Shown here: positions 1 through 18,908 of the stretch, piece by piece | Layout of the letters: every line of letters starts with the position of its first letter | How positions within the stretch are numbered: position 1 is the stretch's first letter | Translations under genes and position numbers: made by a program | NCBI RefSeq assembly: GCF_000321415.2 | Contig: NC_019902.2 | Coordinates: 2,170,001-2,234,000 of the forward strand | Origin: Thioalkalivibrio nitratireducens DSM 14787 | GTDB taxonomy: Bacteria > Pseudomonadota > Gammaproteobacteria > Ectothiorhodospirales > Ectothiorhodospiraceae | DNA length: 64,000 bases | Reading direction: 5' to 3' | Notes under the pieces: model-generated | The model's input: the letters and a program-made list of their open reading frames with translations, nothing else | Databases searched by the model: none | Told to the model about the DNA's origin: nothing

Positions 1-1141
1 GGTGCCAAACGCTGCCCGGCTGGCCGGAGTCCAGCGTCTGCCGCAGCGTTGCGGCCGCCGCGGTAGCGTAACGCGGCTGGCGCAACGGATGCAGCTCCCG
101 CGGCCTGGGGGAGAACTCGGGGAACGCCGGATCCGCTTCGGCCTGGTAGCGCAACCGGCCGTCCAGCGCGCTGACGAACCGCAGCCCGGCCTTGGACTGC
201 ATCGGGTAGCGTTCCCGGATCAAACTCGCCTTGCCGCTCGCCTGCAGCCGGATCACCGGGCAATCCCTCGGCTGCCGGCTCGCGCCCAGGTCGCGCCGGG
301 GCAGCCCCGGGAACAGCCCCGGCGGCATCAGCGCCAGCCTGCCAGGACCGGCAACCGTCAGATCCAGCGCGAACGGCACCGCGGGATCCACCCGGTACGG
401 CTTCAGCGCCCGCTCGGGCTCCGGTGTCCGCGGGCGCACCAGGATCCGTTGCAGGTTCGAGGCGGTGTACGCCAGCACGTACACGTTCGCGTCGTCGGCG
501 GCAACGGCCAGCGGTGTCAGGCCATCCGGCAACGGCTGCTGCCAGCGCAGGCGCAGCGGCTGCGGCACCTGATGCACCGGTTCGAAGCGCTCGGGCTGCG
601 CGCGGTACGGCAGCGGCAGGGGCTCGCCCTCGCACAGCGACACGCGATCCTCGCTGAGGCACCAGATCCGGCTGTCCGGGTCCACCACGGCACGCAGCAC
701 GGGTTGCGGCAGGGGCAGGTGCTGCTGCCAGCGCCGGCGCAGGTGAAACACCACCATGCCTTGCTCGGCATCGTTCCGGTACGGCGCGACGAGGCGGCCA
801 TCGCCGCCCAGGTGCAGGTCGACGAAGCGTCCGGCCGGCGCCTGCACCGGGGCCAGTTCCCGATCCTCGAGCGGCCAGAACTCGCCGCCCACACTGTATT
901 CGAGGCGTTGGCCGTCCGGGCTGATGCGGCCGATCTGACCGTGTGGATCGAGCACCAGCGGCGCGGCAGTCTGCCACTGCGCCCGGGCCGCAGCCGGCGC
1001 GTTGCCCGGCAGCTGCAGGGATTGCCGCTGGGCGAGCGTGAGCGCGCCGCCGCAGCCGGCGTTCCATGCATAGAAGGACGAGCCATTGTCGAAGTCGGCT
1101 TCCTCCCTGAACAGAAAGTACGGCGTGTTGTTGACGTCCAT
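1..1141 (-). CDS. Contractile injection system protein, beta-rich, C-terminus beyond the window
   Basis: This is the last visible gene of the injection-system operon. About 380 codons are seen and the frame is still open at the left edge. I do not recognise a named domain. The protein is rich in short beta-prone segments and Leu/Pro/Arg, with repeat-like stretches (VLDPHGQIGRI, AVVDPDSRIWCL, AVAADDANVYVL) that look like propeller blades. Its place just after baseplate gp6 suggests a tail or baseplate accessory, or a fibre-like part. The chosen ATG at 1139-1141 follows a GGGGGTG box; a GTG 9 bases upstream is possible. The frame is also open back to the TAG that ends the preceding gene. Confidence 0.7.
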   Translation of the reverse strand, partial: MDVNNTPYFLFREEADFDNGSSFYAWNAGCGGALTLAQRQSLQLPGNAPAAARAQWQTAAPLVLDPHGQIGRISPDGQRLEYSVGGEFWPLEDRELAPVQAPAGRFVDLHLGGDGRLVAPYRNDAEQGMVVFHLRRRWQQHLPLPQPVLRAVVDPDSRIWCLSEDRVSLCEGEPLPLPYRAQPERFEPVHQVPQPLRLRWQQPLPDGLTPLAVAADDANVYVLAYTASNLQRILVRPRTPEPERALKPYRVDPAVPFALDLTVAGPGRLALMPPGLFPGLPRRDLGASRQPRDCPVIRLQASGKASLIRERYPMQSKAGLRFVSALDGRLRYQAEADPAFPEFSPRPRELHPLRQPRYATAAAATLRQTLDSGQPGSVWH

Positions 1142-1306
1142 GATCAGCACCCCCGCCACGGCTGCAGTGGGAGGGGCTTTGGCGCCGGGCGGCTCCGGAA
1201 CGGACCGCCTCGCGACCCGCCCCGCCTGCTGACCGGGGGCGGGGGCTCCACCGCCGGGTACCGGACGAGGCCTGCCTGCCAGTGCGCGGAGTGCATCATC
1301 GAGCTG

Positions 1307-3486: not shown

Positions 3487-3891
3487 TCAGGTCAGCTGGT
3501 TCAGATCCAGCGCGAGGGCCAGCGACTGCGGGGCGTCGGAATGACGCAGGCGATAGCGCACGGTCAGGTGCACCTCGGACAGGCGCTCGCGCGTCGTCTG
3601 CACATCCACTCCCTCCACCACGACCCGCGGCTCCCAGCGCTCCAGCGACTTGCGTACCACCCGCGCCATCAGCGCCCGGGTGGTCTCGGTGTTGGGTTGG
3701 TGCACGAAGTCCAGCAGCCCGGCACCGAAGTCGGGCCGCATCAGCCGCTCCCCGGGGCGCGTGAGCAGGATATTGAGCATCACCTCGCGGATGCTGCGGT
3801 CATGCTCGGAATACGGCAGGCGGCCGTGCTGGATGCCACCGAGCAGTGGCCAGCTGATGAGCCTGGGGACCGGCACGTTCATTCGCGGCAC
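3487..3891 (-). CDS. GPW/gp25-family baseplate protein
   Basis: A 134-residue homologue of T4 gp25 and phage P2 GpW. In known systems this small wedge protein starts sheath assembly on the baseplate. The family signature is visible as ILLTRPGERLMRPDFGAGL near residues 40-60, and the length is normal. It lies between the 548-residue membrane protein (which ends at 3892, directly adjacent) and baseplate J. Translation probably starts at MPRMNVPVP; the second Met, three codons in, is also possible. Confidence 0.94.
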   Translation of the reverse strand: MPRMNVPVPRLISWPLLGGIQHGRLPYSEHDRSIREVMLNILLTRPGERLMRPDFGAGLLDFVHQPNTETTRALMARVVRKSLERWEPRVVVEGVDVQTTRERLSEVHLTVRYRLRHSDAPQSLALALDLNQLT

Positions 3892-5538
3892 CTAGCGTTT
3901 GAGTTTGGGGAACGGCAGGCAGATGCGCACCCACGGCAGCCACCAGAACAGGATGTTCAACAGCGAGACCATGATCATCAGCAGGATCATCGCGACCAGC
4001 GTGACGACCGGCAGGCTGAACGAGCAGATCCACTGCAGCGTTCCACCCGGCGGGGCACTGTCGGGGACCGCGTCCGCGGTGACGCCCTTCTTGAATTTGA
4101 TTCGGTCGATCAGGTTGAAGGTGTCCGCCGGGGTGATCATGCTCACCCCCTTCGCCAGGCCGCGTTTGAGATCGGCCAACCCCGGCATCTGGATCAGCGC
4201 CGGACGGCTGGCCTCGGGGTCGAACGGAGCGGCAACACGGAAACGCCGACTGCGCTGGCCCGCGGTGGCCCAGACCAGGTGTTCCTTGCCTTCGACGTCC
4301 AGCACACGCACGAACGGGACGACCTGGTAGAGATCGTGCCGGCCTTGCTGGAACTTCGGAATCGGCACCTCCCTTGCCTGCTCCGTCAACTGTCCGGATA
4401 CCCGGGCCAGGAGCAACTCCCGGAGCCGGGCGGCCTGGGCCTCGGTGAACTCGAGCCGATACTCGATGCTGGCGCTGGAACCACTGGCCGGCTGCGCGGC
4501 GTCCGGCAGCCGTGCGAGCACGGCCGCGGTCCCGTGGCGGTCGATCGCGTCCTCCTGCCCGATGATCCAGCGCAGCAGCGGATTGTCGCCACCATGGCTG
4601 GCGCAGCTGCGCAGGTACTCGGCCAGGCTCTCGCGCGGTCGCACCTGCTCGCGACCCCGTCCGCGACTGACGTTCAGAAAACGGACCTCCCCGAGCAGTT
4701 CCTCCAGACCGGCGTTCTCCACGATTCCGGCCTCACCGAGATGGTACCGGTTGACCAGCATCCGCAGCAGTTCAAAGAACGCCATCGTCGGCCGGCCGCC
4801 CTCCACGTGGCGCGCGTCGCCGTCACGCCAGCGCCGCCGCGCCGGGGCCTCGCGCAGGCCAAACGGCCAGGACAGCTGGCGCTCCAGCGCCTGCTGCACG
4901 CTGCGCTCGGAGGCTGCATCAAACGGCGTCTCGACTGCGCTGTGCTGGTAGTAATGAAAGCCGCCCAGCGGCAGGTAGCCGTAGAGCACGGTGCGGGATT
5001 TGCCGTTGCGGTCGCGGGTGACCACCGGGTGCAGCGGGTGGGTCTCCTCGCCGCTGTAGGTGGGCTTGTCCTGCCGCGGCCGCACGCTGCCGTCCGGGCA
5101 CAGCCGGCGCTGCGCGTCGGGGTCGCGCAGCTCGTCCGCAGCCGGCTGCCAGCCGAGCGCCGCGCCGTCCTCCAGCACCCAGGCAAACTCCTCGCCGCCG
5201 CGCACGCTGCGGATGACAAACCCGGCCGACGCGATGCGGGCCGGATCCAGCGCCGGAAAGCCGGGCCGGTCGCATGCGATCTCGCAGCTGATCAGGTAGA
5301 AGCTGCGATGGATCGGCAGACGCAGCACCACGCTTTCGTCGTGCCGGCTGAAGCGGTCCTGGAACTGCCAGATCGATGCCTGCGGCTGCTCCAGCGCATG
5401 ACTCTCCAGATCCTGCAAAAAGCGGGGGATGAAATCGGTCTCCTGGTAACGATGCAGCTCGGTTCCGGCCTCCAGCGAGTAATGCGGCCGCTGCAGCCGT
5501 ACCCGGTCGTTTGCGTGTCGGACTGCTGTGCTTGCCAT
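3892..5538 (-). CDS. Unknown injection-system protein with C-terminal membrane segment
   Basis: A 548-residue protein of unknown function encoded between the spike and gp25 genes. A good ribosome site (AGAGGAA) precedes the ATG at 5538. The first 480 residues look soluble, with many charged and aromatic residues and no signal peptide. Residues about 503-538 form a long hydrophobic stretch rich in Leu, Ile, Met and Val, followed by a short basic tail (PKLKR). That is consistent with one or two membrane spans. The position argues for a baseplate-associated part, and the hydrophobic end would allow it to tether the machine to a membrane. This last role is inference. I recognise no domain. Confidence 0.85.
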   Translation of the reverse strand: MASTAVRHANDRVRLQRPHYSLEAGTELHRYQETDFIPRFLQDLESHALEQPQASIWQFQDRFSRHDESVVLRLPIHRSFYLISCEIACDRPGFPALDPARIASAGFVIRSVRGGEEFAWVLEDGAALGWQPAADELRDPDAQRRLCPDGSVRPRQDKPTYSGEETHPLHPVVTRDRNGKSRTVLYGYLPLGGFHYYQHSAVETPFDAASERSVQQALERQLSWPFGLREAPARRRWRDGDARHVEGGRPTMAFFELLRMLVNRYHLGEAGIVENAGLEELLGEVRFLNVSRGRGREQVRPRESLAEYLRSCASHGGDNPLLRWIIGQEDAIDRHGTAAVLARLPDAAQPASGSSASIEYRLEFTEAQAARLRELLLARVSGQLTEQAREVPIPKFQQGRHDLYQVVPFVRVLDVEGKEHLVWATAGQRSRRFRVAAPFDPEASRPALIQMPGLADLKRGLAKGVSMITPADTFNLIDRIKFKKGVTADAVPDSAPPGGTLQWICSFSLPVVTLVAMILLMIMVSLLNILFWWLPWVRICLPFPKLKR

Positions 5539-5549
5539 GGGCGTTCCTC

Positions 5550-6191
5550 TCACCAGACGTTGCCGGCACCCGGCGTGTAGCTCGAACTCACGACGGCATT
5601 GGTGATCACGGTATCGGCCTGCACCACGCCGCTGAACTTCGACATTCCGGCGTTGACCGTCACCATGCCGGCGCTGACGGTGATGCTGGCGGCATCGACC
5701 TTCACCTCGCCGGTGGAGCGTACGCTGACCTCGCTGGCGGTCATCTTCACGCTCTGGCCGCCGCGCGCGAGTTCGACCTCGCCACCGTTGCCGTCGGTGA
5801 CGGTCAAACGATGGCCCTGCGGGGTGCGGATCTCCAGCCTGGGGCCCTCGCCGTCGTCGAACTCCAGCACGGTGCCGGCCGGGGTGCGCACGACATAGCG
5901 CTCCTCCTGCGGCTCGGCCTCGTCGGGCACACTGCCCTGCCCGCTCCAGATGCTGCCGAGGACCAGTGGCAGCTCCGGCGTGACGAACGCCAGCACCACC
6001 ACCTCCTGGCGGCGGGGAATGAAACTCGCTCCGTACCCGCTTCCCGCGGAAGAGACGACCACCGCAGCCCAGAGCTCCATGTCCACCCCGTGCAGCCGCA
6101 CCTTGACCCGGCCCCGGCCCTCCGGGTCGGCGTTGTCGGTCACCTCGCCGAGATGCAGGCTCGAGACACCGCCGATCGCATGTGGAGTCAC
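5550..6191 (-). CDS. gp5/VgrG-like spike protein
   Basis: A 213-residue central spike protein. The N-terminal OB-fold region contains LGEVTDNADPEGRGRVKVRL (about residues 14-33), the usual start of gpV/VgrG spike domains. It is followed by RRQEVVVLAF and LVLGSIWSG motifs. The C-terminal third is a run of short alternating beta segments (SVKMTASEVSVRSTGEV and similar), typical of the triple beta-helix needle. I chose the GTG at 6189-6191 because an excellent GGGGGAGG ribosome site lies just upstream. A GTG at 6239 in the same frame lacks one. No PAAR tip protein is visible nearby. Confidence 0.9.
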   Translation of the reverse strand: MTPHAIGGVSSLHLGEVTDNADPEGRGRVKVRLHGVDMELWAAVVVSSAGSGYGASFIPRRQEVVVLAFVTPELPLVLGSIWSGQGSVPDEAEPQEERYVVRTPAGTVLEFDDGEGPRLEIRTPQGHRLTVTDGNGGEVELARGGQSVKMTASEVSVRSTGEVKVDAASITVSAGMVTVNAGMSKFSGVVQADTVITNAVVSSSYTPGAGNVW

Positions 6192-6403
6192 GAGCCCCTC
6201 CCCCGGCGCGGAAGGGACGTCCGGGCGGACCGCAGACACCGCGCGCCGAAGCCGACACCTGCGCGGACGCCCACCGCCGGCAGCCGTGCAGGCACATGCT
6301 CTGCGCCGATGGCGGCCGGGGCCGTGGCGTCGTGCACGCCGGCGCTACACGGCGCCGCTCCGGCAGGGGGTCTCGTTGACGGCAACAGGCGCATGCCGGT
6401 CAA
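6188..6403 (-). CDS. Possible 71-residue peptide between hub and spike genes
   Basis: A short open frame that fills the 208-base gap between hub and spike. Its TTG start overlaps the hub stop codon (TTGA) and its TGA overlaps the spike GTG (GTGA), the same coupling seen elsewhere in this operon. Third codon positions are mostly G or C, as in neighbouring genes. The product is rich in Ala, Arg, Gly and Pro, and no family is recognised. A first internal ATG lies three codons in. It could be a real small component or a chance frame in GC-rich DNA. Confidence 0.35.
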   Translation of the reverse strand: MTGMRLLPSTRPPAGAAPCSAGVHDATAPAAIGAEHVPARLPAVGVRAGVGFGARCLRSARTSLPRRGRGS

Positions 6404-7443
6404 TCGTTCCAGTCCGGGCGGTGGACTTTGAGCTCGGTCTCGTAGCCCGCGGTGTTGTCGAACCGGTGCACGCAGTGCACCACCTGGTAGGTTCCCCGCA
6501 GCCGCCCGGAGACACCGGTGAGTTCGATCTCGCGGCCGCTGCGCAGCGCGGACTGGCCGAGCATGCGGATGTCGCCACTGACGAAGTATTTCGCGCGGCG
6601 GCGGAAACGGCCGGCGACGAAGGCGTCGGCCTCGCCCTGCGAGCGTGCAAACGGCTGCACCACGACCTCCGGACCGGGCCAGCCCAGCCTCCCCAGTAAT
6701 TGCGCGGCGGTGGTGCCCGGCGGCGGGGTGGCCAGCGTGCTCGCAGAGGCCACCGCCGCCTGGTCGGTCGCCGCATTGAAGCCGCGGACCTCGGTGGCAT
6801 CGTGCTGGTGGTTGAGATCCGCGATCAGCCGCACCTGCAGGGCATTGTCCTGCGGGTCCACCCGTACCGGAGTGGCGTCGGGCTCTTCCGGACGAACCCG
6901 CAGGCGGCCATCCTCCAGGCGCAGCGCGATATCCAGCGGAGCGAGCAGCCTCAGCAGGAAGGCCAGGTCGCTCTCGTTCAGCTGGTGATAGTCCATGGCC
7001 ACCGTCGAGGCGCTGACTTCGACCTCCAGGCCGGCGTCATCGGCCACCGAGCGCACCACCGCATCCAGCGTCGTGTCCTCGAACACGCGGCTGCGACGCC
7101 TGCGGCCCAGCCGGTGGAGACGGTCCTGGAGCAGCAGGACCAGCCGCGGGGCCCCATCGCCGTAGCGCTCCTCGAGCGCGGTGATTTCGCCGTGGAAAAT
7201 CCTGCCCTCGCCATCGGTATCGATGGCCAGTTCCACCTCATCGCCCAGCCGGAGATCCTCGAACAACAGCCCGGGGGCCTGGCCTTCACCCTGACCGAAA
7301 TTGGCCAGCTGCAACTCGGCATGAGCACAACCGGTGAGCGGAAGGTTCACGATCATCGCCGACAGCGCGTCCTGCAGATCGCGGCGCGCCTCGCCAGCGA
7401 CCCGGATCCGGGGGCGGCTGCTTGCGAAGGCGGTGTCGTGCAT
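6400..7443 (-). CDS. Baseplate hub protein (gp27 / late control D-like)
   Basis: A 347-residue hub protein of the phage late-control-D/gp27 type, the Afp8 N-terminal equivalent. It would form the trimeric ring holding the spike. Visible family features are an N-terminal beta domain with LLFEDLRLGDEVELAID, a GEITALEERYG segment, DTTLDAVVRSVADDAGLEVEV near residue 125, and NESDLAFLLRLLAPLDIALRL, which matches the VgrG/gp27 YxESDxxFLxRL pattern. Here hub and spike are two genes rather than the single fused gene seen in Afp8. The ATG overlaps the stop of the DUF5908 peptide (TGATG). Confidence 0.9.
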   Translation of the reverse strand: MHDTAFASSRPRIRVAGEARRDLQDALSAMIVNLPLTGCAHAELQLANFGQGEGQAPGLLFEDLRLGDEVELAIDTDGEGRIFHGEITALEERYGDGAPRLVLLLQDRLHRLGRRRRSRVFEDTTLDAVVRSVADDAGLEVEVSASTVAMDYHQLNESDLAFLLRLLAPLDIALRLEDGRLRVRPEEPDATPVRVDPQDNALQVRLIADLNHQHDATEVRGFNAATDQAAVASASTLATPPPGTTAAQLLGRLGWPGPEVVVQPFARSQGEADAFVAGRFRRRAKYFVSGDIRMLGQSALRSGREIELTGVSGRLRGTYQVVHCVHRFDNTAGYETELKVHRPDWND

Positions 7444-7604
7444 CAATCCACCGCCAGGCGCGCCCGGCGTTCCTCCAGCAGCGCCAGGTTCTCCATCAGG
7501 TCGCGCTCGTCGGGCCCGAGTGGCACCGACTCGGCGGCTGGCGCCTGCTCCGGTACGGGCGTCCCCTCGACCTCGGCGATGACTTCGTGGATCACTACCG
7601 GCAT
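7443..7604 (-). CDS. DUF5908-like small injection-system protein
   Basis: A 53-residue protein starting MPVVIHEVIAEVEG and ending in a charged helix (LMENLALLEERRARLAVD). The start and size match the small DUF5908 proteins found next to the LysM adaptor gene in eCIS loci. Their role is not settled. It begins 21 bases after the Afp7-like gene and its TGA overlaps the hub ATG, so the two are probably translated together. Confidence 0.75.
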   Translation of the reverse strand: MPVVIHEVIAEVEGTPVPEQAPAAESVPLGPDERDLMENLALLEERRARLAVD

Positions 7605-7624
7605 TCGATGTTCCTCTGGTCACG

Positions 7625-8512
7625 TCAGTCGAAACCCACGCCTGACAGCCTGGGCTTGGAGGTCGCCACGGTCTTGACCTCCGCACGCATGCTTCCGGCC
7701 GTCTGGGTACTGGCGAAGGCACCGCCGATCCCGGTCCCAACGCTGGCCGACACCCCGACCCTGAAGGCCGCGTCCCCGGTCACCGCGGCGCCGGCCGGCG
7801 GCACCGCGAGGGCCGACGCCGCCGGCAGCCGCGGCGACTCGATCCCGTTGTAAAGGGCGGTCTCGCGCCAGTCACGGGGATCCTGCCCGGCGGCCGCAGA
7901 CGCCTCGTGCACCGGGGTGTCGCTCCCGGCGGCGGGGTTGTCCGCGTCCGGCGCGGCGCCACCGGTCGGCGTGAGCCTGGGCGTCGCCCGTTCCGCCTGC
8001 TCGATGTCCCGGCTGCGGAACTGGTAGCGGTCCTCGCTGAGCTTGATCGACACGGTGGCTCGCAGCGGCCGACCTTCGGGAGAGAAGAAGTCCAGCGTCT
8101 CGTCGAAGCTCTGCACCAGGCCGAGAAACTCGAATGCACCCCACTGGAACAGGCAGCGGCGCGGGGCCTGCAGCTGATCGCCCGCCGCCACCGGCTTCAT
8201 GAAGTGCTCGGCGATCTGCCCGGTCAGCTTGCGCACGTCGGACCCTTCCTCGATCCTCTTCGACGCGGGCTCGCCCTGCGCATCCGAGCCGACGGTCGTG
8301 TCGAAGATCAGCTCCACGCTCAGCGTCGACGAGCTCTTGTCCACGAACTGTGCCGCCTGGCTCGTGCCGTTGCGCGGGTTGGCCTTCAGCGTGTTCGACA
8401 GCGCGACCTTGAGCGAGGCCGGGTTGAACTGCACGTCGATCGCGTCGTGGGTATCCGGCTGGTCGTTGCTGCCGGAGACGGGGATCAGTTGTGCGCGCTC
8501 GATATCGGCCAT
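7625..8512 (-). CDS. Afp7-like tube-baseplate adaptor with LysM-like C-terminus
   Basis: A 295-residue protein of the CIS tube initiator / gp53-LysM type that joins the inner tube to the hub. The N-terminal half carries the family pattern DVQFNPASLKVALSNTLKA (about residues 26-44) and a long beta domain with LSVELIFDT and RRCLFQWGAFEFLGLVQSFD. A LysM-like segment (ASAAAGQDPRDWRETALYNG, about residue 205) follows, and then a low-complexity tail. The gene abuts tube 2: the ATG at 8512 overlaps the last base of that gene's stop codon. Confidence 0.88.
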   Translation of the reverse strand: MADIERAQLIPVSGSNDQPDTHDAIDVQFNPASLKVALSNTLKANPRNGTSQAAQFVDKSSSTLSVELIFDTTVGSDAQGEPASKRIEEGSDVRKLTGQIAEHFMKPVAAGDQLQAPRRCLFQWGAFEFLGLVQSFDETLDFFSPEGRPLRATVSIKLSEDRYQFRSRDIEQAERATPRLTPTGGAAPDADNPAAGSDTPVHEASAAAGQDPRDWRETALYNGIESPRLPAASALAVPPAGAAVTGDAAFRVGVSASVGTGIGGAFASTQTAGSMRAEVKTVATSKPRLSGVGFD

Positions 8513-9018
8513 CAGGCGCCCTCCCCCGCCGCCGGGCGCACCAGCGTAAGTCCCTCGTGAACGAGGTGCAGTTCCTCGATCGCGGCCTGGCTCGCCGTAG
8601 CCGACAGGTCCGGTCCCTTGAACCTGGTGGCCAGTACCTGGGCCAGCTTCCAGACCAGAACCGGGTGGTCCTGCACCGAGGTCACGTCGCCGGTACCGTC
8701 GACCGTGACCGACGGGTGTCCGAGTACCTCGATCTCACCCTCCAGGCGATAGCCGTAGTTCGCACCGCGGGTGGTGATATCGAACCACTTCCAGAGATCA
8801 TCGATGCTGGTGACGCCGCGCTTGAGCACCACCGGCGCGAACCGGGTCTGGCCGGCGCGCTGGAAAGCACCCCAGTTCCGGCCGCCTTCGGCGATCAGCT
8901 TGGGCTCCATGGTCACCTCGAGCCCGGTCACCTCGCTGAACTGACCACCGCATAGGAGCTCGGACCGGTCGCCGTTGTAGAGCGAGACCCGGAAGCGAAA
9001 GGGGACGAACTCGGTCAT
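8512..9018 (-). CDS. Tail tube protein 2 (gp19-like)
   Basis: A 168-residue inner-tube protein of the T4 gp19/Afp5 family. It has FRFRVSLYNGDRSE at the start, then FSEVTGLEVTMEPK and VVLKRGVTSIDDLWKWFD, the standard tube motifs. It differs from tube 1 by a longer central loop and C-terminus, so it probably occupies the baseplate-proximal ring, like Afp5. The start overlaps the sheath 2 stop by four bases (ATGA). Confidence 0.92.
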   Translation of the reverse strand: MTEFVPFRFRVSLYNGDRSELLCGGQFSEVTGLEVTMEPKLIAEGGRNWGAFQRAGQTRFAPVVLKRGVTSIDDLWKWFDITTRGANYGYRLEGEIEVLGHPSVTVDGTGDVTSVQDHPVLVWKLAQVLATRFKGPDLSATASQAAIEELHLVHEGLTLVRPAAGEGA

Positions 9019-10490
9019 GTCCTCAGCTCCGCCGTCCAGTCACCACCGCGATGGACGAAGGCGATATGAATGCGATCGATCGGAAAGGCCGGCGCCACCT
9101 CGATCTCGAAGATGATTACGGCGTCCTGGCCGGTGATCTGCCGGATGCGGTAGGCGTCCTCTGACTTGCGGCCGCGCAGCGCGCCCTGCCGGTATAGGCG
9201 CCGGAAGAAATCCTCCAGCAGCAGCCGGGGCCGCGGGTCGCGGTGGTCCACGTTGAACACCAGCACTTCGCCCAGCGCCCGCAACTGGCGGAGCAGGAAC
9301 CCCATGAAACGGGCCACCTCGCCGCTGCGGTACTCCGCGCGCCCGGTGAGCGTGTACTGGTCGGGCGGCAGCGCGGGCACCGCGAGGCGCTCGTCGTCCA
9401 GGTGCACGCGGCCGCCGTTGACCTGCAGCACGCCGATGCCCGGCCGCTCGCGCAGTTCGAGGGTGCGTTGCAGGGTCACCGCGGGATACGGTCGCGCATC
9501 GGCGCGCATCGGCAGCCCCGCCACCGAACGCCAGATGCCCCGTCGGCGAGCGCCGCCGGCCTGCAGGCCGGCGAGCGCACCGACGCTGCTGACCAGCCGG
9601 TAACCCGCGCCACGCAGGTAGGGGAAGAGCAGCTGCAGCCGGCGCAGCTGGGGCCCGTCGCTGCTCGCCTTGATCGCCTCGATGTCAGCAAGCGCCGCAG
9701 GGTCGAGTCCCGGCCGGTCGGCATTGTCGGTGTCGGAATAGGCCAGCGGCAACGTGAACAGGCACTGCACATCGGGACGGTGCCGCGCCAGCAGGTACTG
9801 CAAGGGCCGCAGCAGGTCGCCGGTAGGCAGCGGCGGCGGAGCGTGTTCGATCTCACCGGGATTGCGCCGCTCGCGATGGCCGTTGTCGATCTCCGTGCCA
9901 CAGGGCAGGAACGGTGGCTCCGCGTTGGCCAGCCGCATGCGCGGAATGTCGGGCAGGTTGGCCGGAATCTGCAACCGCTCCAGGTCCGGCAGCGCGACCA
10001 CGCCCACCTCGGGCAGCGACAGCAGCAGGGCGATACCGCGCAGGCTGTGCAGATCGTGCGGAACCAGCCTGCGCGACGGCAGAAACCCCGCCTGCGCCTC
10101 ATCCTCGGGAATCCGCAGCACCCACAGCCGCTCGCCGCCATTGGCGAAGAAGTCGGTCACCGCCTGCGGCAGCCAGGCCCGCCGACCGGCGAGGATGCTG
10201 CGGTAGTCGGTCGCAGCCTCGCGCGCATCGGGGAAGATGTCGTCGAACTCGGCAACGGAGTTGAGCGGCAGCGGCAGATGACATAGCGCTCGTTCCTCCG
10301 GGGCCGCGAACAGGCGCTCCTCCAGCAGCGGACCCAGACCCACCGAACGCATCTGCTCGAGTGCCTCGTCCGGGATGCGCGGGCGCCGCACCCGCCCGGG
10401 GGCGTGGCCGAGCAGCAGCACCGGCAGTACCGGCCGCTGGCTGGCCGGCGGCCGCGGGGCGACCCGGATACGTTGCTGGAGGAGTTCCAT
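9015..10490 (-). CDS. Tail sheath protein 2 (divergent sheath paralogue)
   Basis: A 491-residue divergent sheath protein. The C-terminal half retains sheath features: FMGFLLRQLRALGEVLVFNV, then LLEDFFRRLYRQGALRGRKS followed by a predicted beta strand. The middle has NGGERLWVLRIP and LQLLFPYLRGAGYRLVSSVG. The N-terminus is Arg/Pro-rich and unlike sheath 1. Loci of this class often carry two or three sheath proteins, with one capping an end of the tail, so a terminal-layer role is likely. Translation probably starts at MELLQQRIRV, 4 bases after the tube 1 gene. Confidence 0.85.
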   Translation of the reverse strand: MELLQQRIRVAPRPPASQRPVLPVLLLGHAPGRVRRPRIPDEALEQMRSVGLGPLLEERLFAAPEERALCHLPLPLNSVAEFDDIFPDAREAATDYRSILAGRRAWLPQAVTDFFANGGERLWVLRIPEDEAQAGFLPSRRLVPHDLHSLRGIALLLSLPEVGVVALPDLERLQIPANLPDIPRMRLANAEPPFLPCGTEIDNGHRERRNPGEIEHAPPPLPTGDLLRPLQYLLARHRPDVQCLFTLPLAYSDTDNADRPGLDPAALADIEAIKASSDGPQLRRLQLLFPYLRGAGYRLVSSVGALAGLQAGGARRRGIWRSVAGLPMRADARPYPAVTLQRTLELRERPGIGVLQVNGGRVHLDDERLAVPALPPDQYTLTGRAEYRSGEVARFMGFLLRQLRALGEVLVFNVDHRDPRPRLLLEDFFRRLYRQGALRGRKSEDAYRIRQITGQDAVIIFEIEVAPAFPIDRIHIAFVHRGGDWTAELRT

Positions 10491-10494
10491 GCGG

Positions 10495-10956
10495 CTACGA
10501 CTGCTCGATGGACTCGACCGCAAGCACCAGTTCCTCGATCGCGACGTCGCTGCCTCCCTTGGCGGTCAGCGTCGGCCCGGTCCACTTGATGGGCATGGCG
10601 TTGATCAGCTTCCAGGTCACGACGGCGCCCTGGCCGCCCGGATCCTCGCTCTTGAGCTTGATCTCGACGTTGCGCTTGGCGGTCACGTCCCCGGCGCGGA
10701 TCTGGTTGAGCCACGAATACAGGTTCTGCGCGCCGATCACACCGCGTTTCAGGGTGACGTCCCCCGCCTTGTGGATCGCGGGGATTTTGCTCACGTAGTT
10801 CACCGGAGCGTTGCCGTTGCGGTACTCGGCCACGGTGACCTCGGCATTGAGCCCCGACACCTCGGAGAAGCCGCCCTGCACGTCGCCTTCGGACCCGTCG
10901 CCCAGGTTCACCAGGTAGTTGAAGACCGAATACGGGGTATCCCTCAGTTCAGCCAT
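10495..10956 (-). CDS. Tail tube protein 1 (gp19-like)
   Basis: A 153-residue major inner-tube protein. Family motifs are NYLVNLGDGSEGDVQGGFSE at residue 14, followed by SGLNAEVTVAEYRNG, VTLKRGVIGAQNLYSWLNQI and a C-terminal IEELVLAVESIE strand. The length is normal for Afp1/Pvc1-type tubes. An AAGGAG ribosome site lies at the usual distance before the ATG, the strongest in this operon, which fits a protein needed in many copies. It follows the sheath 1 gene by 17 bases. Confidence 0.95.
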   Translation of the reverse strand: MAELRDTPYSVFNYLVNLGDGSEGDVQGGFSEVSGLNAEVTVAEYRNGNAPVNYVSKIPAIHKAGDVTLKRGVIGAQNLYSWLNQIRAGDVTAKRNVEIKLKSEDPGGQGAVVTWKLINAMPIKWTGPTLTAKGGSDVAIEELVLAVESIEQS

Positions 10957-10973: not shown

Positions 10974-13181
10974 TCAGGCGTCAGCCGTCTTCTGGCCGAT
11001 GCGGAAAATCACGAACTCGGCCGGCTTCAGGGCGGCCACGCCCACCTCGCAGACCAGGCGGCCGTTGTCCAGATCGTTCTGGGTCATGGTGCTGCGGTCG
11101 CAGCGCACGAAGTAGGCCGCCTTTGGCGAGGAGCCGAGCAGGCGACCGTTGAACCACTCGTTGTAGAGGAAATCCTCGACCGACGAGCGCACGTTCGCCC
11201 ACAGCCGCTCGCCGTTGGGCTCGAACACCACCCATTGGGTCGAGCGGTCGATGGATCGCTCGAGGTAGAGGAAATAGCGGCGGACGTTGACGTAGATCCA
11301 CTCCGGGTCGCTCGAGAGGGTGCGCCCGCCCCAGACGCGATGACCACGACCGGGGAACGAGCGCAGGCAGTTGATGCCCGCCGGGTTCAGCAGTTCCTGC
11401 TGGAACCGGTTGACCTCCTGGGCAAAACGCAGCGCGCCGATCACCGGTTCGTTGGCCGGCGCCTTGTGCACGCCGCGGGTAACGTCGGTGTTGGCATAGA
11501 TACCGGCAAGGAAACCGGCGGGCGGCACCGTGATGTGCTCCTCGAGGCCGCGCGGGTCGGAGATCACCACCCACGGGTAGTACAAGGCCAGCCGCGAGTC
11601 ATCGAAGTTGGACGCGAAGTCACGGATCTCGGACAACGCCATTCCCTGGCGGGCATCGACGATGCCGATGCGGTAGCGCATCCTGCGGCAGTGCTTCTGC
11701 ATTTCCACGACCACGGCCTGGTGGCTATCCGGGTGCGCGGCAGCTGCAGGTGTCATCACGATGGAGATATCCTCGATGTCCTCGAGCGCGGCAAGCCCGG
11801 TGCTACCGTTGACCTCGTCGACCGCACCGGCATAGTCGCGAGCGGACGGAACGTCGCCGTCGGAGCCGCCGGACATCTGGATCAGGTAGCGTGGCCCCTC
11901 GACCGACAGCGGCGGCGGCTGGAGCGCGTCCGCGGCGAACATCGCGTACAGCGCCGCCCGTATGGTCTCGCCGGTGGCACCGTCGGCCAGGCTGCACGCG
12001 ACGGGACTGGTCAGCCGGTCGTAGCGCCTCTCGGGCTCCGCGGACAGCACCTGCGACAGGCTGCGCTCGCCGCCCGGGGCCGTCGACACGTCGCCATAGC
12101 TGTAGACGATCCGGCCATCGGCGTCACCCAAACGCACGTCGACGTCGAAGTTGCGGAGCACGACGCTCGCCGAGGGCGCCGACGGCGTTCCAGCCAGCGC
12201 AGCCAGCGGCAGTTCGATCACGTCGGCCACGTCCGGATTGACGCCGGGGCTGACCGTGAAGACCGTACCGTTCGCGTTCAGGGTGCCGTGCAGAACTGTC
12301 AGGCCACCCCAATCCGTTCCGCCGGTGATGCCGGAAACGTCGATCCCCTCGGGCAGCGTGAGGGTGGCGAAGCTGCCATCAGCCAGGGCGCCACTGGCGG
12401 GGGACCTCGCGTGGACACGCGTGAAATGCACATTTGCCTCGCCGGCATCGACCACCACCTCGGCCACCAGAACGCCCTCATCGGAATCCGGCGCATCTTC
12501 CGGACGGAGGTCCGCCGCTGCGAGCGCAACGCCGTCGGCAGTCTCGATCACCGCGTGGTTGCCCACCAGCACGTAGTGGTCGCCGACTCTGCGAACCAGT
12601 CCGCTGACGTCGATCGGAAAGCGTGCGTCCGGGGCCCGGTCGTCGATATCGCCCACGCGGACATCCCCTGGCAGCCCGGTCGCCTCCAGGTACGCCAGCT
12701 CACCGTCGGCCAGCGGCGCAGTGGCCGACTGGAAACGCAGCAGGTTCTCGCTGTCCCGCCAGTGCAGTTCCAGGGTGTAGTTTCCCGCGGCGCCAGGAAA
12801 TCGGCTGCGGAACGTCACCACGCTGCCAGGATCCGCCGCGGTCGAGAGCTGAGCGGTGCTGCCTCCACCGTCGGCATCGGTGTTGTTGATCCCGGCCAGG
12901 GTACGGGCCACGAAGAGCTGCTTGCCGCCGTTGTCGAAAAAGGCGCGCGCGGCAACCGCGGTGTGGTTCAGCACCGAAGTGCCGCCCAGGCTCAGATCGC
13001 CGCTGTCGCCATAGATGCGCTCGAACTCGCCGAAGCTCGTGACCACCTCGGGTTTCCCGCGCAACGGTCCGGTGCGCGTAGGCCCGACGATGGCGGCAAC
13101 GCTGGTGCCAACGCCCTCGATCGACTTGGCGCGGAAGCTGACTTCCTCGACAAAGACGCCGGGCGCAAGGTACTGGGACAT
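10974..13181 (-). CDS. Tail sheath protein 1 (major contractile sheath)
   Basis: A 735-residue major sheath protein. The N-terminus (MSQYLAPGVFVEEVSFRAKS, then GTSVAAIVGPTRTGPL and FDNGGKQLFVARTL) and C-terminus (YLERSIDRSTQWVVFEPNGE, then a segment with SSPKAAYFVRCD) are textbook sheath. The middle carries an insertion of about 250 residues (roughly 130-380), rich in Asp, Gly and Val, likely a surface domain. This makes the protein longer than minimal sheaths of about 350-480 residues. It is encoded directly after the carboxypeptidase-regulatory-like gene. Confidence 0.96.
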   Translation of the reverse strand: MSQYLAPGVFVEEVSFRAKSIEGVGTSVAAIVGPTRTGPLRGKPEVVTSFGEFERIYGDSGDLSLGGTSVLNHTAVAARAFFDNGGKQLFVARTLAGINNTDADGGGSTAQLSTAADPGSVVTFRSRFPGAAGNYTLELHWRDSENLLRFQSATAPLADGELAYLEATGLPGDVRVGDIDDRAPDARFPIDVSGLVRRVGDHYVLVGNHAVIETADGVALAAADLRPEDAPDSDEGVLVAEVVVDAGEANVHFTRVHARSPASGALADGSFATLTLPEGIDVSGITGGTDWGGLTVLHGTLNANGTVFTVSPGVNPDVADVIELPLAALAGTPSAPSASVVLRNFDVDVRLGDADGRIVYSYGDVSTAPGGERSLSQVLSAEPERRYDRLTSPVACSLADGATGETIRAALYAMFAADALQPPPLSVEGPRYLIQMSGGSDGDVPSARDYAGAVDEVNGSTGLAALEDIEDISIVMTPAAAAHPDSHQAVVVEMQKHCRRMRYRIGIVDARQGMALSEIRDFASNFDDSRLALYYPWVVISDPRGLEEHITVPPAGFLAGIYANTDVTRGVHKAPANEPVIGALRFAQEVNRFQQELLNPAGINCLRSFPGRGHRVWGGRTLSSDPEWIYVNVRRYFLYLERSIDRSTQWVVFEPNGERLWANVRSSVEDFLYNEWFNGRLLGSSPKAAYFVRCDRSTMTQNDLDNGRLVCEVGVAALKPAEFVIFRIGQKTADA

Positions 13182-17827: not shown

Positions 17828-18445
17828 ATGAGCCCCCTGTCCCACCGACGCCGTTTCACACGGATAATGCTGGGCGTGCCGCTGGCGCTGCTGGCCATGG
17901 AACCCGCCCGTTCCAACCCGATCGAGGCGTTGCTGGCAGACGCGCAGAAACCCCTGCACGACGACGAGTTGTGGGTACTGGTAGACGACGCAGAGGCGAC
18001 CCTGAGCGTCTTTCGCGGCCACACCGTGATCGAACGCTTCTTCCCGGTGTCGCTGGGACGCAGCGGCGCGAAACCGGAACGGCTGCGCGGCGGCAACGTC
18101 ACGCCACTGGGCGAGTTCCGGGTCAACCGTTTCAACCACGAGAGCCGTTGGCACATCTTCATCGGAATCGACTATCCCACGCCGGAGCACGCCCGGATGG
18201 CACTGGAGTCCGGCGTGTTCACCGAACAGGATTACCAGGCCTTCATGCGCCATCGCCACCGCTACGGCCAGCCGCCGCAAAATACGATTCTGGGCGGGGC
18301 CATCGGCATTCACGGGATCGGGGGAGGCGACCCGGAGATCCACAACCGCTTCCACTGGACCGAGGGCTGCGTTGCGGTCACCAACGAGCAGATCGAGCGG
18401 CTGGCCGAACTGGTGGATATCGGAACCCGCGTTGTGATCCGGTGA
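17828..18445 (+). CDS. YkuD-family L,D-transpeptidase (exported)
   Basis: A 205-residue YkuD-domain enzyme, expected to form 3-3 peptidoglycan cross-links or attach proteins to the wall in the periplasm. The N-terminus has HRRRFTRIMLGVPLALLAME, an export signal with a twin-arginine-like motif. The catalytic region shows GIHGIGGGDPEIHNRFHWTE followed by GCVAVTNEQI, giving the conserved His and the Cys of the xGCV motif. A GTG 39 bases upstream in frame is possible. A second, LysM-bearing transpeptidase lies 1.2 kb further on, so the two probably have different substrates. Confidence 0.88.
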   Translation: MSPLSHRRRFTRIMLGVPLALLAMEPARSNPIEALLADAQKPLHDDELWVLVDDAEATLSVFRGHTVIERFFPVSLGRSGAKPERLRGGNVTPLGEFRVNRFNHESRWHIFIGIDYPTPEHARMALESGVFTEQDYQAFMRHRHRYGQPPQNTILGGAIGIHGIGGGDPEIHNRFHWTEGCVAVTNEQIERLAELVDIGTRVVIR

Positions 18446-18620
18446 ACATTATTCGCGGGTGCCCCCCGCCCGCTATGGACACGCGCGGCCGACTCCAGTA
18501 CATCCTATGTACAGCAGCCCGCGTCTGCGTTCCAAGCGGCTCTACCGGTGCTGGAGACGCGGGGCGCCTCGAAGCCGGCCTTACCCCGGTCCCCAACCAG
18601 CGAAGTGCAAGGAGATGACC

Positions 18621-18908
18621 ATGAACCCGAAGATCACGTCCCTCAAACTCGGTGCCGTAGCCGCTTCTCTCGCGATACTGGGCGGATGCGCCTCCACGAG
18701 CGCGCTGGAAGAGGTGCGCATGACCGCAGAGGCGGCACAGGCCGAAGCGGCCGAGGCCCGCAGGATCGCCACCCAAGCCCAGGGGACCGCCGATCAGGCC
18801 CTGACCACGGCCAACGAGGCCAAGGCGGATGCCGAAGCCGCCCGCCGGACCGCGGACCAGAATCGCGAAGAGATGAATCGCATGTTCCAGCGCACGATGC
18901 AGAAGTGA
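18621..18908 (+). CDS. Lpp/OprI-like alanine-zipper lipoprotein
   Basis: A 95-residue small lipoprotein resembling murein lipoprotein Lpp/OprI. The signal peptide ends in the lipobox LGGCAST (Cys near residue 22). The mature part is a long Ala-rich coiled coil with heptads (EAAQAEAAEARRIATQAQGT and so on). It ends in QRTMQK, with the terminal Lys that in Lpp is joined to peptidoglycan. An AAGGAG ribosome site sits six bases before the ATG at 18,621; an in-frame ATG at 18,615 overlaps it. Flanking L,D-transpeptidase genes suit such wall attachment, although that link is inference. Confidence 0.85.
   Translation: MNPKITSLKLGAVAASLAILGGCASTSALEEVRMTAEAAQAEAAEARRIATQAQGTADQALTTANEAKADAEAARRTADQNREEMNRMFQRTMQK

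What the first reader, a model, noticed from the sequence alone, without database searches (positions are those of the whole stretch)
3892..5538. Membrane-tethered protein encoded among injection-system baseplate genes
The locus has sheath, tube, hub, spike, gp25 and gp6, but between spike and gp25 sits a 548-residue protein with a long hydrophobic C-terminus and no known domain. Classical Afp/PVC particles are released and need no membrane part. A tail-tethering protein would suggest an anchored or cell-associated machine. This is the window's best candidate for an undescribed variant.
Basis: partly seen in the sequence, partly recalled or inferred. Interest (0 to 1): 0.75.

Follow-up and report, generated by a model that had tools for sequence, protein, structure and literature searches.

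The report
Membrane-helix protein at injector spike slot
In one large branch of bacterial injection machines built from phage tails, the gene place that in related machines often codes for the spike's hard tip holds an undescribed protein with a highly conserved membrane-type helix, which may help the spike enter a membrane.

Summary
In detail: window 3892-5538 (-) encodes a 548-residue protein (here Q) between spike and gp25 of a contractile injection system (CIS), with one strongly hydrophobic C-terminal helix and no Pfam, PHROG, PDB or meaningful NCBIfam relative. Q is a core family, not a local oddity. In all 77 loci found with Q, gp25 is the next core gene; the spike precedes Q in 74, and the other 3 contigs begin at Q. 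Titles span several phyla. In relatives without Q the slot held PAAR or PAAR-like spike tips in 13 of 26 loci; Q loci gave no convincing PAAR-type match, and their spikes end in a special cap. Of 27 loci picked by the cap, 26 have Q next; the 27th contig ends. On a baseplate tree Q systems are one clade, so this is one origin kept together. The helix is Q's most conserved part, flanked by two cysteines kept or lost together (86 both, 8 neither, 0 one). Tail-fibre-like genes are present. Best reading: a spike-tip-slot protein whose helix enters a membrane at firing, more likely the target's.

The parts
3892..5538 (-). Q, 548-aa protein in the spike-gp25 slot
3919..4014 (-). C-terminal hydrophobic helix of Q (residues 509-540)
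   Evidence: AF2 in two members; hydropathy
3907..4026 (-). most conserved stretch of Q (residues 505-544), bounded by the covarying Cys505 and Cys540
4207..5505 (-). folded part of Q (about residues 12-444): discontinuous beta-sandwich with a mixed insert
   Evidence: approximate limits, fold match below the tool's bar
5550..6239 (-). spike, phage baseplate V family (Afp8-like, without hub)
   Evidence: Pfam PF04717
5553..5636 (-). spike C-terminal cap characteristic of Q systems (ends YTPGAGNVW)
3487..3891 (-). gp25-like baseplate protein (Afp9-like)
   Evidence: Pfam PF04965
1307..3472 (-). Baseplate_J protein (Afp11-like); TIGR02243
   Evidence: closest PDB sequence 9gtp_1K
6400..7740 (-). 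hub, Phage_GPD (ORF limits; true start probably inside)
7625..8512 (-). CIS_tube (Cis7-like) protein
8512..9018 (-). tube-type protein 2
9015..10523 (-). probable second, degenerate sheath
   Evidence: weak match to a Rhodococcus sheath, E 5e-4; no Pfam
10495..10956 (-). tube protein 1
10974..13181 (-). sheath
2..1159 (-). start of the Tail_P2_I baseplate gene, which continues left of the window
   Evidence: frame open to the window edge; Tail_P2_I match 1.8e-8 in the adjoining stretch L002; the two parts were not translated as one

Best explanation
Q is a core, clade-defining part of a group of contractile injection systems in whose clusters no PAAR was found. Its gene occupies the spike-tip slot. 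Most likely the folded N-terminal part sits on or next to the modified spike end (or the baseplate around it), and the conserved C-terminal helix, held on a flexible linker, enters a membrane when the machine fires, probably that of the target, helping the spike and tube through. Shown: the family, its position, its co-retention with the spike cap, and the conservation and cysteine covariation of the helix region. Inferred: docking on the spike, membrane insertion, and the direction of insertion.
For: Position: in 77 of 77 Q-selected loci gp25 is the next core gene, its stop 376-954 bases (median 403) past Q's; the spike precedes Q in 74 of 77, and the other 3 have at most 147 bases upstream. 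Slot: in loci without Q the same place holds PAAR (L150, L152, L156), Tox-PAAR-like (L151) or a DUF4280/PAAR-like family (9 loci, L157-L164, L166), that is 13 of the 26 loci examined that show both spike and gp25. In 87 Q-bearing loci (77, 9 more and the own region; two contigs probably counted twice) four PAAR-type queries matched nothing at E 0.01, and two DUF4280-like queries gave one marginal match (E 0.008), about 8 kb from Q. Spike: the YTPGAGNxW cap is strict in 76 of 83 Q-system spikes, with variants in the other 7, and by eye in none of 23 spikes of systems without Q. 27 viral-contig loci chosen by the cap alone: 26 have Q next, the 27th contig ends. In 370 genomes of the class, spike matches over the full cap profile occur in the 8 Q genomes only; one more (G148) is cut by its contig end. 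Helix: mean entropy 1.10 bits against 2.43 in residues 1-500; W533 in 92 and N/D/E528 in 85 of 94 unique cores; Cys505 and Cys540 both in 86, neither in 8, one alone in 0, with 4 changes of the pair on a tree built without the helix. Tail-fibre-like genes: matches in 28 of 28 Q genomes searched. Charge: positive after the helix in 82 of 94 and negative in 7, mean +1.6, against -1.2 before it.
Against: The Q systems are one clade on the baseplate-J tree (SH-aLRT 99), so cap and Q may mark ancestry rather than contact. No complex could be modelled. A 550-residue protein with a low-confidence linker (about residues 461-508) is an odd spike tip and would suit a tether too. Genome-wide absence of PF05488 does not single out Q genomes: 10 of 17 Q genomes lack it, but so do 11 of 17 genomes without Q. 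G148 has a capped spike and no Q was found in it. Two Streptomyces plasmids and a Nostoc plasmid have nothing annotated between spike and gp25, so the slot can be empty. All fibre matches stay under the family's cut-off, and fibres can themselves be anchors, as in Anabaena.
Confidence: 0.42

Rival explanations
1. Membrane tether: Q is a C-tail-anchored protein of the producer's cytoplasmic membrane whose cytosolic part holds the baseplate, as TssL is held to do in the type VI system (recalled) or as proposed for CisA in Streptomyces.
For: Single C-terminal helix, large soluble N-terminal part, low-confidence linker. Membrane attachment of CIS through added helices is published: Cis13 in Anabaena, CisA in Streptomyces, and proposed for Hbor_38620 in haloarchaea (passages read). 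The best PDB matches of sheath and J (8bky, 9gtp) are, from recall, the Streptomyces CIS, which is reported to need a membrane protein for firing.
Against: Helix region far more conserved than the rest of the protein; basic tail after the helix in 82 of 94 cores, against the positive-inside rule (recalled) for an N-in tail anchor; Cis13-like matches in 28 of 28 genomes; position in the tip slot and linked spike end. Two Streptomyces proteins that I label CisA-like found no relative in Q loci, which does not bear on a different tether.
Confidence: 0.3
2. Purely structural part: the helix packs inside the particle, for instance under the spike or in the tube end, and never meets a lipid membrane.
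For: Sequence-specific conservation, with N/D/E at position 528 in 85 and W533 in 92 of 94 unique cores, seems unusual for a plain lipid anchor (inference; no comparison set was run); always encoded among baseplate genes.
Against: Hydropathy 2.79 over 19 residues and 32 residues of predicted helix look more like a membrane helix than a buried one (inference); the stretch before it is predicted with low confidence.
Confidence: 0.17
3. Cargo: Q is an effector carried on the spike, acting by inserting its helix in the target membrane, with a variable extra domain in some members.
For: 8 of 116 homologues carry 106-135 further residues after the helix; type VI tip effectors can carry membrane segments (passages read).
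Against: Q was present in every Q-clade locus that extends far enough, but loci were mostly chosen by Q; in the independent set chosen by the spike cap, 26 of 26. One copy in the own genome. No toxin family match in 64 members.
Confidence: 0.11

Closest known systems
PAAR, PIPY (DUF4150) and DUF4280-like spike-tip proteins of CIS and type VI systems
   Same: Gene slot between spike and gp25; fits a role at the spike end
   Different: Q has no PAAR-type match, is about five times longer and ends in a membrane-type helix; its partner spike ends in a cap not seen in the 23 spikes of systems without Q
CisA of Streptomyces CIS (eLife 2025, PMC12237407, passages read)
   Same: CIS-encoded, one membrane helix
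   Different: No similarity to a Streptomyces protein that I label CisA-like from its layout (zinc ribbon, helix, C-terminal domain, after the baseplate genes); CisA has a large domain after its helix, the window's Q has 8 residues after it
Cis13 of the thylakoid-anchored CIS (PMC8894136, passages read)
   Same: Membrane helix added to a baseplate-associated CIS protein
   Different: Cis13 is the fibre family; the own cluster has separate Cis13-like genes without a strong membrane segment (best 1.67); Q matches no NCBIfam CIS family
Hbor_38620 of haloarchaeal CIS (PMC11566945, passages read)
   Same: CIS-linked predicted membrane protein used to argue for an anchored machine
   Different: Reported with six membrane helices and encoded upstream of the core cluster; Q has one helix. 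No sequence comparison was run
Sco4256-type CIS effectors of Streptomyces (PMC10020575, PMC10066040, passages read)
   Same: Soluble N-terminal part then one membrane helix
   Different: No profile similarity of Q to a Streptomyces plasmid protein that I label Sco4256-like from layout and neighbourhood only

Membership tests
Contractile injection system of the eCIS/Afp kind | sheath, tube, hub, spike, gp25 and J genes together | tested here: met
Contractile injection system of the eCIS/Afp kind | AAA ATPase and eCIS_core (DUF4157) protein in the cluster | tested here: met
   AAA 2.1e-25 and eCIS_core 6.7e-30 in L002
Contractile injection system of the eCIS/Afp kind | PAAR spike tip (Afp10) | tested here: not met
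   none in the own 104 kb by phmmer nor in the own genome by PF05488; S. coelicolor CIS is also reported without PAAR, so not disqualifying
Contractile injection system of the eCIS/Afp kind | Cis13/Afp13 tail fibre | tested here: inconclusive
   two genes match the N-terminal part of CIS13_fam (9.5e-9, 9.4e-8) but stay far under its cut-off
PAAR/PIPY spike-tip protein | PAAR, Tox-PAAR-like or DUF4280 domain | tested here: not met
   Q has no Pfam match
PAAR/PIPY spike-tip protein | gene between spike and gp25 | tested here: met
PAAR/PIPY spike-tip protein | binds the end of the spike | not testable with these tools
   no complex prediction offered
CisA | sequence relationship | tested here: inconclusive
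   hhalign probability 0.2% to one Streptomyces protein and no hit of two such proteins in ORFs of 87 Q-bearing loci; but these are CisA-like by my label only, CisA itself was not at hand
CisA | single membrane helix with a large domain after it | tested here: not met
   8 residues after the helix in the window protein; 8 of 116 homologues have an extension
Type VI secretion system (anchored) | TssJ/TssL/TssM membrane complex | not tested
   not searched
Ig-like beta-sandwich proteins (fold of the N-terminal part) | fold similarity to solved Ig-like domains | tested here: inconclusive

The most novel reading that the evidence does not exclude
A whole cross-phylum clade of contractile injection systems has replaced the hard PAAR tip by a membrane-inserting tip: Q docks on a dedicated cap at the spike end and drives a near-invariant hydrophobic segment, whose two flanking cysteines act as a pair, into the target membrane. 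If the cysteines pair within one chain, the segment would be a disulphide-closed hairpin that could form only after leaving the reducing cytoplasm.
Probability: 0.3. Interest if true: 0.8.

Novelty: new variant of a known kind. Interest (0 to 1): 0.6.

Why it matters
How a CIS tube and spike cross a lipid bilayer, and whether uncharacterised CIS are released or held, are open questions. Q gives a sequence marker for a large CIS clade, and a single gene whose removal would test whether such machines carry a membrane-entering tip or a membrane tether. The family has no model in the Pfam, NCBIfam and PHROG copies searched here and no sequence relative in the PDB copy, so surveys by known domains would miss it.

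Tried and rejected
Tried without gain: viral-contig scan with Q alone (1 pattern match, 0 relatives); tblastn of one Q relative at E 0.1 and of one capped spike at 0.001 against 50,697 phage records (0 matches); tblastn of three Q relatives against 72,556 plasmids (one Rhodococcus record each time); PDB profile search (2 rows, best E 1.7, unrelated); Foldseek against PDB and BFVD (0 matches at 0.001 in each). The Ig-like matches from VIA lie under its bar and are told as a hint only. As a positive control, the own sheath and J do match deposited CIS chains named Afp, Pvc and All3325, so CIS structures are in that library.

Rejected: that Q is CisA-like, Sco4256-like or related to the Roseomonas slot protein, as far as the labelled Streptomyces proteins stand for those families (one marginal phmmer row at E 0.007 for the Sco4256-like query in L037, taken as chance); that Q is a phage gene (the 27 IMG/VR loci with the cap show CIS gene order); that genome-wide lack of PF05488 shows replacement of PAAR. 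A loose motif scan for PAAR met single occurrences in 33 of 87 loci, in any frame; not followed further, taken as chance. A first regular-expression count of the cysteine pair misread the second cysteine and was replaced by an aligned count. AF2 gives one straight 32-residue helix in two members, which speaks against an intrachain cysteine hairpin; unresolved. The motif filter missed the DUF4280-like proteins, which were then found by their length, by Pfam and by phmmer.

Not done: no complex prediction, no dedicated membrane-topology program, no TssJLM search, no comparison set for helix conservation, no check of Roseiflexus castenholzii itself. Of 30 class genomes with a TIGR02243 match and no Q, 20 were fetched; of 48 plasmid records with a J match, 9 besides the Q plasmid. 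Literature: searches showed no listing that describes this protein; Chen et al. 2019, whose survey is reported to name subtype-specific genes, is not held and supplementary files could not be read, so it may be listed there.

Full report
What was checked. The open frame at 3892-5538 on the minus strand codes for 548 residues and lies in an operon-like row: sheath, tube, second sheath-like protein, second tube-type protein, CIS_tube protein, hub, spike, Q, gp25, Baseplate_J, then left of the window Tail_P2_I, two CIS13-like genes, two long frames of no known family, an AAA ATPase and an eCIS_core protein of up to 1279 residues. Q has no Pfam, PHROG or meaningful NCBIfam match, alone or for the 64 members of its family. 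A profile of 64 members finds no relative in the PDB (best E 1.7), although the own sheath matches chains named Afp2-4, Pvc2-4 and All3325, and the own J matches Afp11 weakly.

The family. Of 58 near relatives, 2 genomes including the own have Q; of 370 genomes of the class, 8 including the own. One scan of genome contigs with a 5-row alignment returned 77 loci, whose record titles name members of Pseudomonadota, Nitrospirota, Chloroflexota, Acidobacteriota, Bacteroidota, Rhodothermota, Actinomycetota, Desulfobacterota and Myxococcota; many are metagenome bins, whose naming can be wrong, but isolates include Roseithermus, Hydrogenophaga and Methylomonas, and a complete Rhodococcus opacus plasmid also carries it. 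In all 77 gp25 is the next core gene after Q (stop to stop 376-954 bases, median 403); in 74 the spike lies before Q, and the other 3 start at or just before Q. tblastn with one member met no match among 50,697 phage records. Near-copies occur (several Methylomonas), and two contigs (L016/L057 and L022/L081) are probably the same records fetched twice, judged by equal contig length.

The slot. TIGR02243 matches 38 of 370 class genomes; 30 of these have no Q, and 20 of the 30 were fetched. With 9 plasmid records this gave 26 loci without Q that show both spike and gp25; 3 class loci showed only J. Of the 26, 13 carry a PAAR, Tox-PAAR-like or DUF4280/PAAR-like protein in the slot: L150, L151 (after a further gene), L152, L156, and nine loci L157-L164 and L166 joined by phmmer. 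Pfam was run on four of those nine; one passed the DUF4280 cut-off and three were weak. L168 and L169 share a 112-114-residue protein of no known family there; the Roseomonas plasmid has an unrelated 252-residue hydrophobic protein; two Streptomyces plasmids and the Nostoc plasmid have nothing annotated there; in Deinococcus the spike is not next to gp25. For the remaining 6 no slot protein was recognised in the narrow stretch examined. In 87 Q-bearing loci, four PAAR-type queries found nothing and two DUF4280-like queries one marginal row (E 0.008, L027, about 8 kb from Q).

The spike end. Spikes of Q systems end in a conserved cap with YTPGAGNxW at the very C-terminus: strict motif in 76 of 83, variants in 7, of which L038 is far off. 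None of 23 spikes from systems without Q shows it by eye; several of those end on a bare beta-helix (alignment). Searching by the cap alone gave 27 viral-contig loci: 26 have Q as the next gene, the 27th contig ends; three of these contigs had also been found by Q. In the class sample the cap profile is matched to its end in the 8 Q genomes only; G148 matches to position 131 of 139, where its contig ends, and no Q was found in it. Sixteen further genomes match only parts of the profile.

One clade. On a tree of Baseplate_J (32 Q rows, 22 without Q; 3 chosen Q rows lacked a long enough J and were left out) the Q rows are one side of one branch with support 99 (IQ-TREE quick search). So cap and Q arose once, or were lost once, and have stayed together over deep divergence. 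This is strong evidence that Q is a core part, and only moderate evidence that Q touches the spike end.

Tether or tip. For a tether: added membrane helices anchor CIS in Anabaena (Cis13), act in Streptomyces (CisA) and are proposed in haloarchaea (Hbor_38620) (passages read), and Q's layout would suit it. For the tip: the slot, the spike cap, the extreme conservation of the helix, and the charge pattern (mean -1.2 in the 20 residues before and +1.6 in the 12 after the cysteines; positive after in 82 of 94, negative in 7), which would be unusual for a tail anchor inserted from the producer's cytosol (positive-inside rule, recalled). The cluster also has genes that match the N-terminal part of the Cis13 fibre family; 28 of 28 Q genomes searched have such matches, two in 23 of them, all under the family's cut-off. 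In 7 of the 9 genomes from the genome search they lie within 10 kb of Q; in the other two the Q contig is too short. A 2026 fibre survey (PMC12923769, passages read) places fibre genes after Tail_P2_I and describes Tail_P2_I loci as carrying up to four fibres, which fits the order seen here. Fibres suggest contact with outside targets, but Anabaena's Cis13 shows that fibres can also be anchors.

Conclusion. I favour a spike-tip-slot protein that engages a membrane during firing (0.42) over a producer tether (0.30), a buried structural helix (0.17) or carried cargo (0.11).

Noticed in passing
L002:16156-18006 and 17864-18769 (genome 2166156-2168769, left of the window): Two overlapping frames matching the N-terminal part of the CIS13 fibre family; 23 of 28 Q genomes searched also show two such matches.
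   Followed up: partly
L149:12845-13603 (Roseomonas marmotae plasmid): A different, 252-residue protein with several hydrophobic stretches sits in the same spike-gp25 slot; no similarity to Q by hhalign.
   Followed up: partly
L168:7665-8129 and L169:8353-8817: A shared 112-114-residue slot protein with no Pfam match, possibly another kind of spike tip.
   Followed up: no
L014, L020, L218, L227-L230, L233: Eight Q homologues carry 106-135 further residues after the membrane helix, a possible extra domain.
   Followed up: no
L021:8273-10400 (G186): Q is split between two frames; a sequencing error or a broken gene. The pieces were used apart.
   Followed up: no
window:13191-14714: A 507-residue protein of no known family upstream of the sheath; relatives were recognised in 29 of the 77 Q loci.
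   Followed up: no
L002:5228-9067: A frame of up to 1279 residues with an eCIS_core (DUF4157) domain, a likely cargo or cargo-related protein of this machine; the true start may lie inside the frame.
   Followed up: no
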